The translations under genes and the position numbers were made by a program. Source: an uncultured Chromatiaceae bacterium (lineage in GTDB: Bacteria; Pseudomonadota; Gammaproteobacteria; Chromatiales; Chromatiaceae). From it: DNA of 64,000 nt. The stretch is from NCBI GenBank assembly GCA_937923175.1, contig CALALB010000001.1, positions 1 to 64,000 on the forward strand. Reading direction: 5' to 3'. Numbering within the stretch: the first letter of the stretch is position 1; each line of letters starts with the position of its first letter. The notes under the pieces are model-generated. The model worked only from the letters and a program-made list of their open reading frames with translations, ran no database searches and was not told the origin of the DNA. Of this stretch, positions 25,681-32,751 are shown in pieces.

Positions 25681-25720
25681 TAGCTGCTGTTCCTCAGCGC
25701 TGATTGCGTCTTTGTGAGGG

Positions 25721-25796
25721 GGTGGCGAACGGTGGGTCGATTTGCTCAGCCCCGTTCGCCACCAGCACTAGCAGTGCCAGAAGGGGTGGCCCCTTC
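25721..25796 (+). promoter_or_regulatory. Two stable hairpins between pufA and pufL
   Basis: Stem 1: ggtggcgaacgg (25721-25732) with ccgttcgccacc (25752-25763), perfect 12 bp with a 19-nt loop. Stem 2: gaagggg (25780-25786) with ccccttc (25790-25796), 7 bp with a 3-nt loop. Such intercistronic structures are known in puf operons to protect pufBA mRNA from 3' decay, so that LH1 is made in excess over reaction centres. No T-tract follows. Confidence 0.75.
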
Positions 25797-25826
25797 GGCT
25801 GCCTCTACAGCAGAGGATCATTGACC

Positions 25827-26666
25827 ATGGCCATGCTCAGTTTTGAGAAAAAATACCGCGTTCGGGGCGGGACGCTGATAGGGGGAGATCTGTTCGATTT
25901 CTGGGTGGGGCCGTTTTATGTCGGCTTCTTTGGGGTTACCACCTTTATCTTTGCGTCCCTGGGGGTATTGCTCATCGTCTGGGGGGCAACCCTCGGCCCT
26001 ACACCTGAATTACAAAGCTATAACCTGTGGCAAATTAGCATCGCGCCCCCTGATATAAGCTATGGGCTTGGGATGGCCCCGCTTAGGGAAGGCGGGTTGT
26101 GGCAGATCATTACCCTATGTGCGATCGGCGCCTTTGTGTCTTGGGCGCTCCGAGAGGTTGAGATCTGCCGTAAGCTTGGTATCGGCTACCATGTTCCCTT
26201 TGCCTTTTCGTTTGCGATCGGCGCTTACCTGGTGCTCGTGGTGGTGCGGCCGATCCTGCTGGGCGCCTGGGGCCATGGTTTCCCCTATGGCATCCTGAGT
26301 CACCTCGATTGGGTGTCAAATGTAGGTTATCAGTTCCTGCATTTCCACTACAACCCCGCCCATATGCTCGCCATCGCCTTCTTCTTCACCAACTGTTTGG
26401 CGTTGTCGATGCACGGCTCGCTGATCCTGTCGGTGATGAATCCGGCAGAGGGCGAGACGGTCAAGACCAGCGAGCATGAAAACACCTTTTTCCGTGACCT
26501 GGTGGGGTATTCGATCGGTGCGCTTGCCATCCATCGTTTGGGTCTGTTTTTGTCGCTGAGCGCCGTGTTCTGGAGCGCGGTCTGCATCCTGATCAGCGGC
26601 CCCTTCTGGACCCGCGGCTGGCCAGAGTGGTGGAATTGGTGGCTTGAGCTGCCGATCTGGAAATAA
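25827..26666 (+). CDS. pufL: Photosynthetic reaction centre L subunit PufL
   Basis: Integral membrane subunit (279 aa) of the type II reaction centre, with five helices binding the special-pair and accessory BChl, BPhe and quinones. The N-terminus [15 protein letters not shown] is the family hallmark. Ligand histidines lie in [14 protein letters not shown] and in ALSMHGS, and further on HEN and IHRLGLF match the non-haem iron and QB region. The start at 25827 is preferred over an open frame reaching 25704. An MAM start allows Met3 as alternative. It is followed by pufM at 12 bp with an AAAGGAG site. Confidence 0.97.
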
Positions 26667-26678
26667 AGGAGACACACG

Positions 26679-27656
26679 ATGGCCGAATATCAAAATATCT
26701 TTACGGCGATTCAAGTGCGCGCGCCGGCCTATCCAGGGGTGCCGCTCCCCAAGGGTAGCCTGCCGCGACTCGGGAAGCCGGTCTTCTGGTATTGGCTCGG
26801 TAAGATCGGCGATGCCCAGATTGGTCCGATCTATCTCGGTTTTGCCGGGACCATGTCGATCATCTTTGGGTTGATCGCAATCGCGATCATCGGTCTTAAC
26901 ATGCTGGCCTCGGTGAATTGGAATGTCATCGAGTTTCTCAAGCATTTCTACTGGTTGGCCTTAGAGCCACCGGCACCCCAATATGGCTTGCATATCCCGC
27001 CGTTGTCGGAAGGTGGCTGGTGGCTGATCGCGGGGTTGTTTTTGACCCTCTCAATCCTGCTCTGGTGGGTGCGGACCTATAATCGCGCGAAGGCTCTGGG
27101 GATGGGGACGCATCTGTCCTGGGCCTTTGCGGCAGCGATCTTCTTCTATCTGGTCCTGGGCTTTATTCGTCCGGTGATGATGGGAAGCTGGGCTGAGGCC
27201 GTTCCCTTTGGCATCTTCCCGCATCTCGACTGGACGGCGGCCTTCTCGATCCGCTATGGCAACCTGTACTACAACCCCTTCCATATGCTGTCGATCGCCT
27301 TCCTGTATGGTTCGGCCCTGCTGTTTGCGATGCATGGCGGGACAATCCTGGCGGTCAGCCGGTTTGGGGGTGACCGAGAGATCGATCAGATCACCCATCG
27401 CGGTACGGCAGCCGAGCGTGCGGCCCTGTTTTGGCGGTGGACCATGGGCTTCAATGCGACCATGGAATCCATTCATCGCTGGGCATGGTGGTTTGCGGTG
27501 CTCACAGTGATCACGGCAGGCATTGGTATCCTGTTGAGCGGTACAGTGGTCGATAACTGGTATCTCTGGGCGATGAAGCATGGGATGGTCCCGCCCTATC
27601 CCGAGGTCGTCACTGCTCAGGACCCATACGCCATGACCGCGGGGGTGTCACAATGA
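26679..27656 (+). CDS. pufM: Photosynthetic reaction centre M subunit PufM
   Basis: Partner of PufL (325 aa), starting [16 protein letters not shown]. Histidines in [21 protein letters not shown] and in [10 protein letters not shown] match the special-pair/accessory BChl and iron-site ligands, and [11 protein letters not shown] is typical. The Shine-Dalgarno AAAGGAG lies 8 nt upstream. Its stop overlaps the pufC start by four bases (ATGA at 27653-27656), so the cytochrome is translationally coupled. Confidence 0.98.
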
Positions 27657-28891
27657 AGATCGAGAAACAAATCGCGCTGCCTGTTGTCGCTGTCATCGCA
27701 TCCGTCGTGTTGCTCGGCTGCGAGCGGCCACCACCGCAAAGCACCCAGATCGGTTATCGCGGCGTGGGGATGGAGCAATATGACAATCCGCGTACGCTTG
27801 CTGCGAAACGCTGGGCAAACCGGCCGGTCGAATCGCTCCCGCCCGCGGCTGAAGGTGGTCCGATGGCAAAGGACGTTTATCAGAACGTTCAGGTCTTGAA
27901 TGACCTGACGGTTGCTGAGTTCACTCGGACCATGGTCGCCGTCACGACCTGGGTGTCGCCGAAGCAGGGTTGCAATTATTGCCATGTGCCAGGCAACTGG
28001 GCCTCCGACGACATCTATACCAAGGTCGTGTCGCGTCGGATGTTCGAGATGGTCCGTGCGGCCAACACCGACTGGAAGCAGCATGTGGCGGTCAATGGGG
28101 TAGGGGTGACTTGCTATACCTGTCACCGCGGCAATCCGGTGCCCAAATATGTCTGGGTGACGGATCCGGGTCCCAAACATCCATCGGTTGTGACCCCGAC
28201 TGGCCAAAACTATGGTTCGCCAACCGTGGCTTATACCTCCTTGCCCTATGATCCATTGACACCCTTCCTGGATCAGAGCAATGAGATCCGGATCACCGGC
28301 ACCAAGCCGTTGGCAGGGAGCAATCCGGCCTCCCTCAAGCAGGCGGAGTGGACCTTTGGCCTCATGGCATATATCTCCGATTCGCTTGGGGTCGGCTGCA
28401 ACTTCTGCCATAACACCCGGGCATTCAACGACTGGAAGCAGAGCACGCCGCAACGCGCCACTGCCTGGTATGCGATTCGGCATGTTCGCGACATCAACCA
28501 GAACTATATCTGGCCACTCAATGATGTGCTTCCGGCATCGCGCAAAGGCCCCTATGGCGATCCGATGCGGGTCGGCTGCATGACCTGCCATCAGGGTGTC
28601 AATAAGCCGCTCTTTGGCGCGCAGATGGCCAAGGACTACCCCGGCCTTTATCGGACGGCTGTTGCTGAGACGCCGGCTGAAACCCCTGCCGAAGCTGCTG
28701 CCGCTGAGGCTTCAGCCGCGGTAGAGGCAGTAGCGACCGCAGAGGCCGCTGCTCCTGCGCAGGAGGCTGCTCCTGAGGCGGCACCGGCTGAGGCACCGCC
28801 GGCTGAGGCGGCACCCGCTGAGGCGGCACCCGCTGAGGCGGCCCAGGGTGGCGAAGCGTCCTCACCTGCCCCTGTGCCTCAGCAGCTCTAA
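27653..28891 (+). CDS. pufC: Reaction-centre tetrahaem cytochrome c subunit PufC
   Basis: Periplasmic electron donor to the special pair. The N-terminal signal ends in a lipobox LLGC (Cys23), so it is a lipoprotein anchored to the membrane. Four CXXCH haem sites appear at C107NYCH, C154YTCH, C249NFCH and C309MTCH. Methionine or histidine sixth ligands are expected from the family. Residues 340-412 form an Ala/Pro/Glu-rich tail with PAEAAPAE-type repeats, an extension not needed for haem binding. Length is 412 aa. It is the last gene of the puf operon and is followed by a strong terminator. Confidence 0.97.
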
Positions 28892-28999
28892 AGTATAAAG
28901 CAGCCAAGGGCAGGGACGCTCTTGGGGAATTGAGGGGTGGGGGATGTCTATGCAGCAAACTTAGGTTGCTGACTCGTGCATCAGCCGGAAGTATGCCTG

Positions 29000-29023
29000 G
29001 GGCGGGATCTTCCCGCCCTTTTT
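29000..29023 (+). terminator. Intrinsic terminator of the puf operon
   Basis: GGGCGGGA (29000-29007), loop TCT, TCCCGCCC (29011-29018), then TTTTT (29019-29023). An 8-bp GC-rich stem with a U-tract is a classic intrinsic terminator. It lies about 110 nt after the pufC stop and 8 nt before the yjbQ start. Confidence 0.9.
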
Positions 29024-29030
29024 ATGTCTT

Positions 29031-29465
29031 ATGTCCATGCAGTTTTATATCGATCAGATCCGTCTCTCTAGCCAGTCTCCCATTGAGCTCATCGATTTGA
29101 CAGCCCGGCTCAGGGATCTCTTTGCGCTTCACCCCATCCGCCAAGGCTGGATCAATCTGGCAACCGCCCATACTACTGGTTTCATTGCCATTAATGAGCG
29201 CGAACCCGAGCTTCAGCGCGACATGCTTGATTTTTTAAGGCGCATCGCCCCGCCTGGCCGAGGCTATCGGCATGATCGCAATCCGGTCGATGACCGCCCT
29301 AATACCCATGCCCATCTGATCGGTCTGTTCATGAACGCCTCCGAGACCATTCTGGTCGAGGAAGGGCGGCTGCTGCTTGGCGATTGGCAGTCGGTCTTCT
29401 TCATCGAGCTCGACGGACCCCGAGCCGAGCGGCTTATCCATGTCCAGATCGCTGGTATTACCTAA
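29031..29465 (+). CDS. yjbQ: YjbQ family protein (UPF0047)
   Basis: A 144-aa member of the small trimeric YjbQ/UPF0047 family. Family marks are TAHTTGFIAINE (His cluster), DRPNTHAHLIGLFMNAS and LLLGDWQSVFFIELDGPR. Members have been reported to have weak thiamine-phosphate synthase activity. The main role is unknown. The start is at 29031, or Met3 at 29037. It lies directly behind the puf terminator, so it must have its own promoter or depend on read-through. Confidence 0.88.
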   Translation: MSMQFYIDQIRLSSQSPIELIDLTARLRDLFALHPIRQGWINLATAHTTGFIAINEREPELQRDMLDFLRRIAPPGRGYRHDRNPVDDRPNTHAHLIGLFMNASETILVEEGRLLLGDWQSVFFIELDGPRAERLIHVQIAGIT

Positions 29466-29492
29466 CCCCTTGCCGGATAATCGCCATTCATG

Positions 29493-29538
29493 GAGATCCC
29501 CGCAAGGAAAACCGCGCCTTCGGTCGCGGGGGAATCTC
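29493..29538 (+). promoter_or_regulatory. Structured RNA element upstream of the RLP gene
   Basis: GAGATCCCCGC (29493-29503) can pair with GCGGGG..ATCTC (29526-29538, with a two-base bulge). A small inner ACCG...CGGT stem lies between the arms. It sits in the 278-nt gap between yjbQ and the RuBisCO-like gene, which otherwise has no supported gene. It may be a leader element or a terminator without a U-tract. Confidence 0.4.
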
Positions 29539-29743
29539 GAGCATGTTGTCACCAACCGCAATTGTGTCTATGGTCTGCGGGCGCACAGCGATTTGACTGC
29601 AAGTCGGAACCTTGGATGGGCGGAACTGCCGTTTCGCCCAGGGCGGTTGTCAATACGCCTGATGTCAGGGAGGAGCAGGGGCTTGTCCGACGATAAGGCC
29701 TGCGAGTTCGGTCGCGGGTTATTGACCTCAGCAGGTTGAGCCG

Positions 29744-31090
29744 ATGGAGACATTCGACTGGGCCGGTTTTTTTGCAGATGGGTTTGATCTCGATCGAGAG
29801 GCATATCTATTCCTTGATTACTACATCGAATGCAGCGGCGATCCCAGGATTGCAGCCGCCCATTTCTGCGCCGAACAATCCACCGCTCAATGGCGACGGG
29901 TCGGATATGACGAGGACCTACGGCCGCGGTTCGGGGCGCGGGTCATCGATCTTGAGGTCCTCCGAGAGCTTCCCAGTTTTAGCTATGGGTTGAGCCCAGC
30001 GGCCGAGGGTCCTATCAACGCCTGCCGGCTGCGTATCGCCCATCCGCATGGCAATTTCGGCCCGCGTTTGCCAAATCTCTTAAGCGCTATCTGCGGCGAG
30101 GGGACCTTTTTTGCCCCTGGGATTCCGGTCGTTAAGCTACTCGATATCGCCTTTCCCAATTCCTATCTGTCTGCTTTTGAAGGCCCGCAGTTTGGGGTCG
30201 AGGGGCTGCGCGCGTGTCTGAGGGTCTATGAACGGCCGATCCTGTTTGGCGTCATCAAACCCAATATCGGTCTGCCTCCCGAGGCATTCAGCGCCCTCGG
30301 CTATGAGGGCTGGGTCGGCGGGCTTGATATCGCCAAGGACGACGAGATGCTCGCGGATACCCCTTGGTGCCCCCTTGCTCGCCGGGCTGAGCTTTTGGGT
30401 GAGGCACGCCGACATGCCGAGGCATCGACCGGTATGCCTAAGATCTATCTGGCCAATATCACCGATGAGGTGGACCTTCTGATTGATCTTCACGACCTAG
30501 CGGTAGCCCGGGGTGCCAATGCCTTATTGCTTAATGCCTTGCCGGTGGGACTCAGCGGGGTGCGGCTGCTGCGCAAGCATGCCGAGGTCCCCTTGGTCGC
30601 CCATTTCCCGCTAATCGCCGCATTGAGCCGATTGGCCCATTTCGGCATCCATACCCGGGTCATCACCAAGCTCCAGCGTCTGGCAGGCTTTGACGCCATC
30701 ATCATGCCGGGCTTTGGAAGACGCATGCAGATGACCGACGACGAGGTGTTATCTTGCGTGCGCGCCTGTCTTGAACCCATGGGCCCAATTAAACCAAGCC
30801 TGCCAGTACCTGGCGGCAGCGACTGGGCAGGGACCTTGCCATCCCTCTATGAGAAACTCGGTACGGTCGATTTCGGTTTTGTGCCTGGGCGCGGGGTCTT
30901 TGGGCATCCCCAGGGGCCACGCGCCGGTGCTGCAAGCATTCGCCAGGCCTGGGAGGCGATCGTTTCGGGTAAAGGCTTAGAGGAGTACGCCTTGGGTCAT
31001 CCCGAGCTTGCTGTAGCCCTCGCTGCCTTTGGCAAACGCACCGCCCAGACTCCCGTACCTGAAGCGCCCTTGACCGGAGCTGTGTCTTGA
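29744..31090 (+). CDS. RuBisCO-like protein (form IV, photo type)
   Basis: A 448-aa member of the RuBisCO superfamily lacking carboxylase features. It keeps Lys172 (GVIKPNIGL, equivalent to the catalytic Lys of IIKPKLGL) and the carbamylation-site region [10 protein letters not shown] (Lys198, Asp199, Asp200). The loop-6 region, however, reads [18 protein letters not shown] rather than the GxVxGKLEG of true RuBisCO, so the loop-6 Lys is absent. This fits the form IV-photo RLPs of Chlorobaculum and Allochromatium, linked to sulfur metabolism and oxidative stress. It overlaps idi by four bases (TTGA). Confidence 0.9.
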
Positions 31091-31659
31091 GCGCTGAGAT
31101 CTTGCCCCCCCTATCCGATGAGGCGCGGGCCCGTGTTGCCCAGCGCGACGCCCAAGAGCAGGTGATCCTGGTCGATGAACGGGACCAGGCCATTGGGATT
31201 GGAGGCAAGCTTGAGGCCCATCGGCTTGGGCAGCTCCATCGTGCCTTCTCGATCCTGATCTTCAATCGAAGAGGCGAGCTATTGCTCCAGCGCCGGGCCG
31301 CGGTCAAATATCATTTCGGCTGTCTGTGGTCGAATACCTGTTGCGGGCATCCCCGCCCCGGTGAGCCGACCGAGGACGCAGCCAGGCGCAGGCTTGATGA
31401 GGAATTTGGCCTACAGGTTGGGCTCAGGGAACGGATGCGATTGATCTATCGGGCCGAGGATCCGGCAAGTGGCCTGATCGAGCATGAATATCTCCATGTC
31501 TTTCAGGGTCTCTGCGCCGATCCACCGCGGCCCGATCCAGCCGAGATCGGCGCCTGGCGAATGCTTGCGCCTACCCAGATCCAACGGGCGCTGAGGCTGC
31601 ATCCCGAATGGTTTACCCCCTGGTTTAGATTGCTCGCCGACCGGCTGCTGTTTTCCTAG
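31087..31659 (+). CDS. idi: Isopentenyl-diphosphate delta-isomerase, type 1
   Basis: Interconverts IPP and DMAPP, the isoprenoid precursors for carotenoids and the BChl tail. Nudix fold with catalytic Cys in [12 protein letters not shown], the Nudix-like RRLDEEFG, and catalytic Glu in IEHEYLHVF. The start is a TTG at 31087, inside the RLP stop (TTGA overlap), indicating translational coupling. Length of 190 aa is normal. Its place next to the photosynthesis cluster supports a role in pigment supply. Confidence 0.93.
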
Positions 31660-31737
31660 CGCTGACCGGCCTTGAACGCCGCTTGGGTATTACCCAAATC
31701 ACCTTTCCAGGATGCTTTCCAGCAAGGCCCTTTAGAG

Positions 31738-32751
31738 ATGCCCGATCGATTGCAAGCGCCATCGCGCGCAACCCCAAAGACCCATCAACGCGGACGAGAG
31801 AAGGTGGCCCCTGTCCTCGACAGGGAGGGGGTAGGGGGAGTGGCCGCGCCCTTGCCAACTGTCCAGGCCATGCCCAAGCCAGGATGGATCCGCGTCCGCG
31901 CCGCGCTTGGTCCGCATGTGGTCCGCATGAAGTCGCTACTGCGCGCCCAGGGTCTTGCCACTGTCTGCGAGGAGGCCCAATGCCCAAACCTCGGCGAGTG
32001 TTTTCAGCAAGGCACGGCTACCTTCATGATCCTGGGCGACCGCTGCACCCGCCGCTGCCCGTTTTGCGACGTTGCCCATGGGCGGCCTGTACCGCCTGAC
32101 CCTGAGGAACCTGAGCATTTGGCCGAATCGATCGCCCATTTGGGTCTGCGCTATGTGGTGCTCACCTCGGTCAACCGAGATGATCTCCGCGATGGCGGAG
32201 CGGGGCATTTTGCGGCATGCGTGCGCGCTATCCGCGCCCGCACCCCCGGGGTTAAGATCGAATGTCTAGTGCCAGACTTTCGCGGGCGCGAGAACAGTGC
32301 GCTGAATCAATTGGGCGGCGATGCCCTGCCTGATGTCTTTAACCATAATCTCGAAAGCGTCCCGCGTCTCTATTCCCTGGTACGCCCGGGTGCCGATTAT
32401 CAAGGCTCATTGCGTTTGCTTGCGGCATTCAAGGCGCGCCACCCCCAGGTTCCGACCAAGTCTGGGCTCATGCTCGGTTTGGGTGAGACCTGGGAGGAGC
32501 TGATCGGGGTGCTGCGGGATCTATGCGCCCATGGCTGTACCATGCTGACGCTTGGCCAGTATCTGCAACCCTCACCGGCCCATCTGCCGGTCCAGCGCTA
32601 TTGGACGCCGGATGAGTTTCGCGAGCTTCGCCAGATCGCCGAGGGGATGGGGTTTGTAAGCGTCGCGAGCGGTCCCCTGATCCGCTCGTCTTATCAGGCC
32701 GAGCAGCAGGCCCGAGGGATCTTAGCGGGCCGGGCCATGAGATCCCGCTAG
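31738..32751 (+). CDS. lipA: Lipoyl synthase LipA
   Basis: Radical SAM enzyme inserting two sulfurs into octanoyl groups of lipoyl domains. The auxiliary cluster motif is [12 protein letters not shown] (CX4CX5C), the radical SAM cluster is CTRRCPFC (CX3CX2C), and the C-terminal RSSY motif is present. The start at 31738 (MPDRLQAPS) is favoured; the frame is open from 31672 and another Met occurs at 31870. Length is 337 aa. The last 30 bp overlap the convergent murU gene. Confidence 0.96.

What the first reader, a model, noticed from the sequence alone, without database searches (positions are those of the whole stretch)
29744..31659. RuBisCO-like protein gene translationally coupled to idi beside the puf operon
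The RLP and idi genes overlap by TTGA and follow puf closely. RLPs of this type have been linked to sulfur and redox physiology, while idi serves isoprenoid (pigment) synthesis. Coupling hints at an unrecognised link between the RLP and isoprenoid or pigment metabolism.
Basis: partly seen in the sequence, partly recalled or inferred. Interest (0 to 1): 0.55.

Follow-up and report, generated by a model that had tools for sequence, protein, structure and literature searches.

The report
RuBisCO-like protein linked to isoprenoid genes
In purple sulfur bacteria an enigmatic RuBisCO-like protein is read together with an isoprenoid gene and travels with a second small unknown protein, which points to a testable role in feeding the pathway that makes photosynthetic pigments.

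Summary
Window 29744-31090 is a Form IV-Photo RuBisCO-like protein (RLP); 31087-31659 is a type I IPP isomerase (idi) starting on TTG inside the rlp stop (TTGA), behind a GGAG. In the window's order, idi follows rlp on the same strand in 42 of 77 rlp loci; the 4-base overlap is kept in 24 of those 42 with changing start codons, so the coupling looks selected. But idi is a lineage-local partner. This YjbQ is a distinct group; its ortholog sits beside dxs in 10 of 10 Chlorobiaceae genomes examined. Both partners point to 1-deoxyxylulose-5-phosphate (DXP)/isoprenoid supply. My mechanism (inferred, unassayed): RLP turns 5-deoxyribulose-1-phosphate, salvaged from the radical-SAM by-product 5'-deoxyadenosine, into DXP for pigments and quinones. 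Papers seen call the Photo RLP's role open. Interpretation partly supported; interest moderate to high.

The parts
25704..28891 (+). pufL, pufM, pufC (reaction centre genes) at the end of a crt-bch-puf cluster
   Evidence: TIGR01157 pufL 430 bits and BchZ 784 bits; Photo_RC and CytoC_RC Pfam; bchO, crtI/crtB/crtC/crtD-family genes, an FPP/GGPP-synthase-family gene, bchC, bchX upstream, some of the crt models below their cut-offs
28999..29019 (+). terminator-like hairpin (9 pairs, T-run) between pufC and yjbQ
   Evidence: consensus match only (7 found in the region, 3.8 +/- 2.2 in shuffles)
29031..29465 (+). yjbQ/UPF0047, the RLP-associated group (called YjbQ-P here); deepest conserved partner of rlp
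   Evidence: Pfam UPF0047 109.6 bits; TIGR00149 93.6 bits, cut-off 67.75; directly upstream of rlp in relatives; own group in the tree
29744..31090 (+). rlp, Form IV-Photo RuBisCO-like protein, 448 aa
31076..31079 (+). GGAG, likely ribosome-binding site of idi inside the 3' end of rlp
   Evidence: read from sequence; the same bases at the same place in 20 of the 24 loci with the 4-nt overlap
31087..31090 (+). TTGA, 4-nt overlap of idi start (TTG) and rlp stop (TGA)
   Evidence: 4-nt overlap in 24 of 42 loci with idi downstream
31087..31659 (+). idi, type I isopentenyl-diphosphate delta-isomerase, 190 aa
31672..32751 (+). lipA, lipoyl synthase (a radical SAM enzyme), next gene on the same strand; true start probably further in
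   Evidence: TIGR00510 405 bits, cut-off 310; on the same strand downstream of idi in 38 of the 42 loci with idi downstream of rlp

Best explanation
yjbQ-rlp(-idi) is a module of anoxygenic phototrophs that acts at the entry of the MEP (isoprenoid) pathway. Shown: the gene order and its conservation, the separate YjbQ group, the dxs link in Chlorobiaceae, the kept enolisation site of the RLP, and the presence of mtnA and an MTAP-family phosphorylase in the genomes tested. [quoted passage not shown] the RLP then moves the carbonyl by two enolisations, the chemistry that the R. rubrum RLP performs on the 5-methylthio analogue, which with this substrate gives 1-deoxyxylulose-5-phosphate (DXP) in one step with no desulfurising cupin. 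YjbQ-P would assist at the same node, for example as epimerase of a by-product epimer (the least certain step). In the window's group, coupling to idi balances the resulting IPP/DMAPP for carotenoid, bacteriochlorophyll tail and quinone synthesis.
For: Partners converge on DXP/isoprenoids: idi coupled to rlp; YjbQ-P ortholog beside dxs, same strand, in 10 of 10 Chlorobiaceae genomes fetched, against 0 of 9 for the other Chlorobiota YjbQ copies fetched. rlp and YjbQ-P co-occur: 75 of 210 genomes have a YjbQ of 124 bits or more and all 75 are among the 76 rlp genomes; the best of any rlp-less genome is 92.8 bits. rlp tracks phototrophy: 74 genomes have both rlp (76) and pufL (77). In 139 of 139 RLPs the lysine and metal-ligand motifs of RuBisCO (K172, K198, D200, E201) and H287 are kept, while the arginine that in RuBisCO holds the second phosphate is Phe (residue roles recalled): fits a monophosphate with a non-polar far end. 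mtnA over cut-off in 20 of 20 carriers tested outside the order, of 23 with handles; phosphorylase family in 41 of 41, 17 over cut-off. In Chlorobiota the RLP stretch holds an LsrF-like thiolase and a RhaD-like aldolase, families that act on deoxy-ketose phosphates (substrates recalled). R. palustris Photo RLP was once reported to convert a little of the methylthio analogue (passage). BchE is over cut-off in 40 of 41 genomes tested; the one lacking it, G189, is one of the two phototrophs without rlp.
Against: No activity on 5-deoxyribulose-1-phosphate has been measured here or in the passages read. R. [quoted passage not shown] tepidum effects (passages). mtnA is near universal in the order (199 of 210), so it does not discriminate. 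The other rlp-less phototroph, G192, does have BchE. In Chlorobiaceae rlp sits with catabolic-looking genes, not with yjbQ or dxs. No type I idi near rlp in Ectothiorhodospira or Rhodopseudomonas. The dxs link is seen in one family and may be a single event; DXS uses thiamine diphosphate and YjbQ has a secondary thiamine-phosphate synthase activity, so that link has another reading. The YjbQ tree is rooted at the midpoint only and carries long-branch warnings. Some phototrophs such as Rhodobacter have BchE but, as I recall, no Photo RLP.
Confidence: 0.32

Rival explanations
1. Cluster effect: rlp, yjbQ and idi sit together because all are expressed with the photosynthesis genes; Photo RLP works in sulfur oxidation or redox stress and has no metabolic tie to isoprenoids.
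For: All 48 loci with pufL within 6 kb have idi beside the yjbQ-rlp pair, and of the 29 others only one truncated contig does. The C. [quoted passage not shown]
Against: Does not explain the kept 4-nt overlap with changing start codon, the yjbQ-rlp pair away from puf in many genomes or the YjbQ-P/dxs pair in Chlorobiaceae.
Confidence: 0.28
2. Catabolic salvage: Photo RLP handles a deoxypentulose phosphate for breakdown, as a carbonyl-shifting isomerase like LsrG or in a DHAP-shunt-like route, with an LsrF-like thiolase and a RhaD-like aldolase finishing the job; isoprenoid neighbours are incidental.
For: LsrF-like thiolase (505.9 bits, cut-off 297), RhaD-like aldolase/SDR and an SDR are each on 64 of 65 Chlorobiota rlp stretches. 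The DHAP shunt for 5'-deoxyadenosine is established in other bacteria (passage).
Against: tblastn found these three genes near rlp in no other lineage, apart from one weak opposite-strand aldolase-like hit, 27% identity, in L169 (the SDR was counted only above 45% identity). Does not explain YjbQ-P/dxs or rlp/idi.
Confidence: 0.2
3. Thiamine link: YjbQ-P is a thiamine-phosphate synthase-like enzyme; with RLP it supplies thiazole phosphate or thiamine diphosphate, the cofactor of DXS.
For: The YjbQ family has secondary thiamine-phosphate synthase activity (title seen in a reference list); NCBIfam name of TIGR00149; YjbQ-P/dxs adjacency.
Against: The activity is described as secondary; I know of no role of an RLP in thiazole synthesis; the phototroph restriction is unexplained.
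Confidence: 0.1

Closest known systems
Form IV-Photo RLPs (C. tepidum RLP 1ykw/1tel, R. palustris RLP2 2qyg, A. vinosum Alvin_2545)
   Same: Same clade by sequence: 672 and 616 bits against 203 for the next solved RLP; A. vinosum gene numbers (RLP Alvin_2545, puf Alvin_2547-2555; passages) fit the order seen here
   Different: No difference found in the protein; the yjbQ partner, the coupled idi and the dxs link were not in the passages I read
MTA-isoprenoid shunt (DeepYkr RLP plus cupin) of R. rubrum and R. palustris
   Same: An RLP that feeds DXP by a carbonyl shift on a 5-substituted ribulose-1-phosphate (passages)
   Different: Different RLP clade; R. palustris Photo RLP does not do that reaction (passage); the substrate proposed here lacks the methylthio group, so no cupin is needed
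DHAP shunt / 5-deoxyribose salvage of the radical SAM by-product
   Same: Same upstream intermediates to 5-deoxyribulose-1-phosphate (passages; start of the abstract of PMC6079011)
   Different: Ends in aldol cleavage to DHAP and an aldehyde, not in DXP
AI-2 (Lsr) breakdown
   Same: LsrF-like thiolase NF006081 in Chlorobiota RLP loci
   Different: Other Lsr genes were not searched for; the thiolase was found near rlp in Chlorobiota only

Membership tests
Form IV-Photo RLP | Closest sequence kinship to C. tepidum RLP and R. palustris RLP2, away from DeepYkr, YkrW/MtnW and true RuBisCO | tested here: met
   672/616 bits against 203 and below among solved structures; 63-67% identity to C. tepidum RLP across alignment A1
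Form IV-Photo RLP | Lacks RuBisCO residues while keeping the enolisation lysine and metal site | tested here: met
   K172, K198, D200, E201, H287 in 139 of 139; F288 in place of the RuBisCO arginine in 139 of 139, aligned to RuBisCO 6hun. Residue roles recalled
Form IV-Photo RLP | Found in phototrophs | tested here: met
   74 of 76 rlp genomes of the order also have pufL; the other two are 87% and 76% complete
Type I IPP isomerase | Passes curated equivalog cut-off | tested here: met
   NF002995 and TIGR02150 over cut-off
YjbQ/UPF0047 | Passes curated cut-off | tested here: met
   TIGR00149 93.6 bits against 67.75; Pfam UPF0047
MTA-isoprenoid shunt | RLP of the DeepYkr clade | tested here: not met
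   Photo clade by best matches
MTA-isoprenoid shunt | Cupin methylsulfurylase in the genome | not tested
   No cupin query was run
Proposed 5'-deoxyadenosine to DXP route | MtnA and an MTAP-family phosphorylase present in the window's genome | tested here: met
   G000 mtnA 459 bits, cut-off 279; MTAP family 269.5 bits, just under its cut-off of 274.85
Proposed 5'-deoxyadenosine to DXP route | RLP converts 5-deoxyribulose-1-phosphate to DXP | not testable with these tools
   Needs an enzyme assay

The most novel reading that the evidence does not exclude
Photo RLP with its dedicated YjbQ is a second, sulfur-free RLP route to DXP: anoxygenic phototrophs recycle the radical-SAM by-product 5'-deoxyadenosine straight into isoprenoids, closing a loop between tetrapyrrole synthesis (BchE, HemN make the by-product) and the isoprenoid tails and carotenoids that the same pigments need. 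From recalled stoichiometry, about three by-product molecules arise per bacteriochlorophyll, against four C5 units in its tail.
Probability: 0.22. Interest if true: 0.88.

Novelty: new variant of a known kind. Interest (0 to 1): 0.62.

Why it matters
The function of Photo RLPs is open in the papers I saw: a 2018 R. palustris study (PMC5893883, passages) says further experiments are needed and a 2024 A. vinosum study (PMC11267869, passages) says the role is unclear. A conserved partner (YjbQ, itself listed as of unknown function in PMC7954711, passage) and a concrete substrate make it directly testable. If right, it also gives YjbQ/UPF0047 a metabolic setting and could explain why loss of the RLP has broad effects in C. 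tepidum, since quinones and pigment tails are both isoprenoids (my inference; I did not read the mutant papers).

Tried and rejected
Idea that idi is the universal partner: rejected (28 of 77 rlp loci of the order have no idi directly beside the pair; none found in other lineages by tblastn with type I idi). Caveat: in L178, L180 and L184 the contig ends within 700 nt downstream of rlp, so idi there cannot be judged. Idea that idi follows rlp even away from puf: weak support only, two genera with a divergent idi about 1.4 kb from rlp on the other strand, and three genomes with idi 4.3-6.2 kb away. mtnA as discriminating marker: useless, nearly universal. Neighbours of the sister YjbQ rows in non-phototrophs: no common pattern seen by eye in six loci. 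Virus contigs: no relative. Natural test with AcsF (oxygen-dependent cyclase): 8 of 210 genomes have it (7 over the cut-off), all 8 have pufL, and both rlp-less phototrophs (G189, G192) are among them; 28/2926 = 0.0096, worked out by hand, if the 77 were independent, but the test was chosen after seeing the first genomes and both belong to one genus whose third phototroph G191 has AcsF and rlp. LipA beside idi as a radical-SAM hint: suggestive only. A structure prediction was not run because Photo RLPs and YjbQ relatives have solved structures.

Limits: the genome-contig scan kept the best 80 of 223 relatives and was led by the C. tepidum sequence, so it is rich in Chlorobiota and poor in Alphaproteobacteria; no Gemmatimonadota were among the 80. 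In the YjbQ tree 71 of 132 sequences were used (all 42 unlinked, 29 of 90 linked); in the RLP tree 49 of 139. Of the 11 Chlorobiaceae genomes, YjbQ loci of one (G214) were not fetched. L205 and L093 are the same place, as are L109 and L128. Hanson and Tabita 2001 and Tabita 2007 are not held; Erb 2012 and Warlick 2012 were seen only as cited in other papers. The 124-bit line for YjbQ-P was drawn after seeing the gap in the scores.

Full report
What is there. The window genome belongs to an order in which 77 of 210 held genomes have pufL at E <= 0.001. The window carries a photosynthesis cluster: bchO, crtI-, crtB-, crtC- and crtD-family genes, an FPP/GGPP-synthase-family gene, bchC, bchX (some crt models below their cut-offs), bchZ and pufL, pufM and pufC. 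Downstream of pufC, on the same strand, come yjbQ/UPF0047 (29031-29465), rlp (29744-31090), idi (31087-31659) and lipA (31672-32751). The RLP is Form IV-Photo: 672 bits to R. palustris RLP2 (2qyg) and 616 to C. tepidum RLP (1tel), the next solved RLP only 203. idi passes two equivalog cut-offs.

The junction. idi starts on TTG at 31087, one base before the rlp stop TGA (31088-31090), so the two share TTGA; GGAG at 31076-31079 is 7 nt before the start. I fetched up to 20 kb around rlp (or puf, or idi) in 78 other genomes of the order and measured distances by tblastn. Of 77 loci of the order with rlp sequence (the 76 plus a fragment at a contig end in G059), idi lies within 300 nt downstream on the same strand in 42, in 10 of the 20 rlp-bearing genera, and within 600 nt upstream on the same strand in 7. 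In 24 of the 42 (8 genera) the overlap is exactly 4 nt, with TTG in 14, GTG in 7 and ATG in 3 (counted by hand from the rows; starts were chosen by closeness to the window's start); the other 18 have gaps of 43 to 239 nt. A kept overlap with a changing start codon is what selection for coupled translation leaves. Against a simple operon: the 278-nt yjbQ-rlp gap of the window holds a promoter-like match, though one such match is no more than chance (1.7 expected), and transcription was not tested.

But idi is not the general partner. All 48 loci with pufL within 6 kb of rlp have idi beside the yjbQ-rlp pair; of the other 29 only the truncated contig of G059 does (in L178, L180 and L184 the contig ends too soon to tell). 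In the 28 remaining loci idi, where found on the stretch, is a divergent copy about 1.4 kb away on the other strand (two genomes, two genera) or 4.3-6.2 kb away (three genomes). tblastn with the window's type I idi found none near rlp in Ectothiorhodospira (6 loci), Rhodopseudomonas (7), Rhodopila (1) or Chlorobiota (65); type II idi was not searched. In the RLP tree (49 of 139 rows) the loci with idi downstream fall in one group of 14 rows (100/98) apart from genus g32, so this order may have arisen only once or twice.

The deep partner is YjbQ. yjbQ is directly upstream of rlp on the same strand (within 450 nt) in 73 of 77 loci of the order; the four exceptions are L159 (1,278 nt away), L180 (not on the 5.3-kb contig) and L187 and L188 (contig begins at rlp). 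It is likewise upstream in 15 of 15 further loci outside Chlorobiaceae from the genome-contig scan: Ectothiorhodospira 6, Rhodopseudomonas 7, Rhodopila 1 and one Chloroherpetonaceae genome (a sixteenth, Thiorhodococcus drewsii, is the same place as L128 of the order set). It is beside rlp in none of the 64 other Chlorobiota loci. Many genomes have other YjbQ copies: 182 of 210 in the order have some YjbQ. Yet 75 genomes have one of 124 bits or more and all 75 are among the 76 rlp genomes (only G056, 76% complete, lacks it); the best in an rlp-less genome is 92.8 bits. A tree of 71 of 132 YjbQ sequences sets the rlp-linked ones (29 used) apart together with one of the copies of Chlorobiaceae (10 used; support of the split 98/94; the only other row, L205, is the same place as L093) (midpoint root, long-branch warnings elsewhere in the tree). 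I call this group YjbQ-P.

YjbQ-P meets dxs. In Chlorobiaceae, where YjbQ-P is not beside rlp, it is beside dxs: 10 of 10 genomes fetched, same strand, 20 to 598 nt apart by alignment ends; the other YjbQ copies fetched from Chlorobiota are near dxs in 0 of 9. The neighbour was confirmed as DXS in two of these (TIGR00204, 771 and 808 bits, cut-off 466) and found by tblastn in the rest. So the two partners of Photo RLP, one local (idi) and one deep (YjbQ-P), both lead to the MEP pathway. The dxs link is vertical inheritance within one family and may be a single event. No dxs was found near rlp on any stretch searched.

Who has it. rlp and pufL coincide in 74 genomes of the order. pufL without an rlp hit: G059 (which has an rlp fragment at a contig end), G189 and G192. 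rlp without pufL: G054 and G056, 87% and 76% complete. G189 and G192 have puf and a puf-adjacent idi but neither rlp nor yjbQ on that stretch, and only low-scoring YjbQ elsewhere. BchE, the radical SAM cyclase, is over cut-off in 40 of 41 genomes tested; G189 is the exception, but G192 has BchE. AcsF, the oxygen-dependent cyclase, is in 8 of 210 genomes (one of them below the cut-off), among them both G189 and G192, but also G191, which has rlp and belongs to the same genus. This leans towards a tie between rlp and oxygen-independent, radical-SAM-based pigment synthesis, but it is post hoc and rests on one genus.

The enzyme. In 139 of 139 Photo RLPs the lysine base and the metal motif of RuBisCO are kept (window K172, K198, D200, E201) and so is H287; the next residue, arginine in RuBisCO and a ligand of the second phosphate (role recalled), is Phe in 139 of 139 (alignment to RuBisCO 6hun, counts). 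That suits enolisation of a sugar monophosphate whose other end is not polar. In Chlorobiota the RLP stretch also holds a RhaD-like aldolase/dehydrogenase, an LsrF-like thiolase (505.9 bits, cut-off 297, one member scanned) and an SDR, each on 64 of 65 stretches, the exception being the Chloroherpetonaceae locus. The known substrates of those families (recalled) are deoxy-ketose phosphates; a C4-oxidised 5-deoxyribulose-1-phosphate would be the LsrF substrate (my inference).

Mechanism proposed. R. rubrum RLP isomerises 5-methylthioribulose-1-phosphate to 1-methylthioxylulose-5-phosphate, which a cupin desulfurises to DXP (passages of PMC6302742 and PMC4958253). The Photo RLP of R. palustris does not take part in this and had no detectable activity on that substrate, although an earlier study reported slight conversion (passages of PMC5893883). 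The same carbonyl shift on the substrate without sulfur, 5-deoxyribulose-1-phosphate, gives DXP directly (my inference). That substrate is made by MtnA from 5-deoxyribose-1-phosphate (passage). MtnA is over cut-off in 20 of 20 carriers tested outside the order and found in 199 of 210 genomes of the order; an MTAP-family phosphorylase was found in 41 of 41 genomes tested (17 over cut-off), and in 8 of 9 Chlorobiaceae tested it lies next to mtnA. The presence of these genes shows feasibility, not function.

Novelty. Searches of the held library found no paper with both 'RubisCO-like' and 'YjbQ' (0 papers), and one with 'deoxyribulose', 'xylulose 5-phosphate' and 'deoxyadenosine' together (PMC6302742), whose passages propose aldol cleavage, not an RLP, for 5-deoxyribulose-1-phosphate. 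Two wider searches listed no further paper that I recognised as proposing it, from titles, abstract starts and passages only. The library holds only open-licence papers, so absence there is weak. Photo RLPs in phototrophs, and the A. vinosum RLP close to puf, are known (passages).

Verdict. A real, selected gene coupling, part of a broader and, as far as I could search, undescribed pairing of Photo RLP with a dedicated YjbQ. It makes an open question directly testable. The exact reaction remains a hypothesis.

Noticed in passing
window 29466-29743: The gap between yjbQ and rlp is 278 nt here, against about 73 nt between alignment ends in the closest relative (L111) and mostly 10-36 nt in others; roughly 200 nt look inserted in this genome.
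   Followed up: partly
window 31672-32751: lipA (radical SAM lipoyl synthase) follows idi on the same strand here and in 38 of the 42 loci with idi downstream of rlp; reason unknown.
   Followed up: partly
Chlorobiota loci (e.g. L080 6795-8912, L088 8979-9860, L052 2664-3488): Chlorobiaceae RLP locus: RhaD-like aldolase/SDR, LsrF-like thiolase, rlp, SDR, with bchF on 53 of 65 stretches: an apparently conserved deoxy-ketose-phosphate operon of unknown purpose.
   Followed up: partly
G189 and G192 (L185, L186): Two phototrophs of one genus with puf and idi but no rlp and no high-scoring YjbQ-P; both have AcsF, G189 lacks BchE: natural rlp-less strains for comparison.
   Followed up: partly
L183 (G155): rlp is covered by two matches in the same frame in which query residues 243-359 appear twice: an internal duplication or an assembly error.
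   Followed up: no
Chlorobiaceae genomes G210-G213, G215, G216, G218, G219: An MTAP-family phosphorylase far below the family cut-off lies 30-46 nt (between match ends) from mtnA in 8 of 9 Chlorobiaceae tested (G220 is the exception): a likely nucleoside salvage pair with unknown specificity.
   Followed up: no
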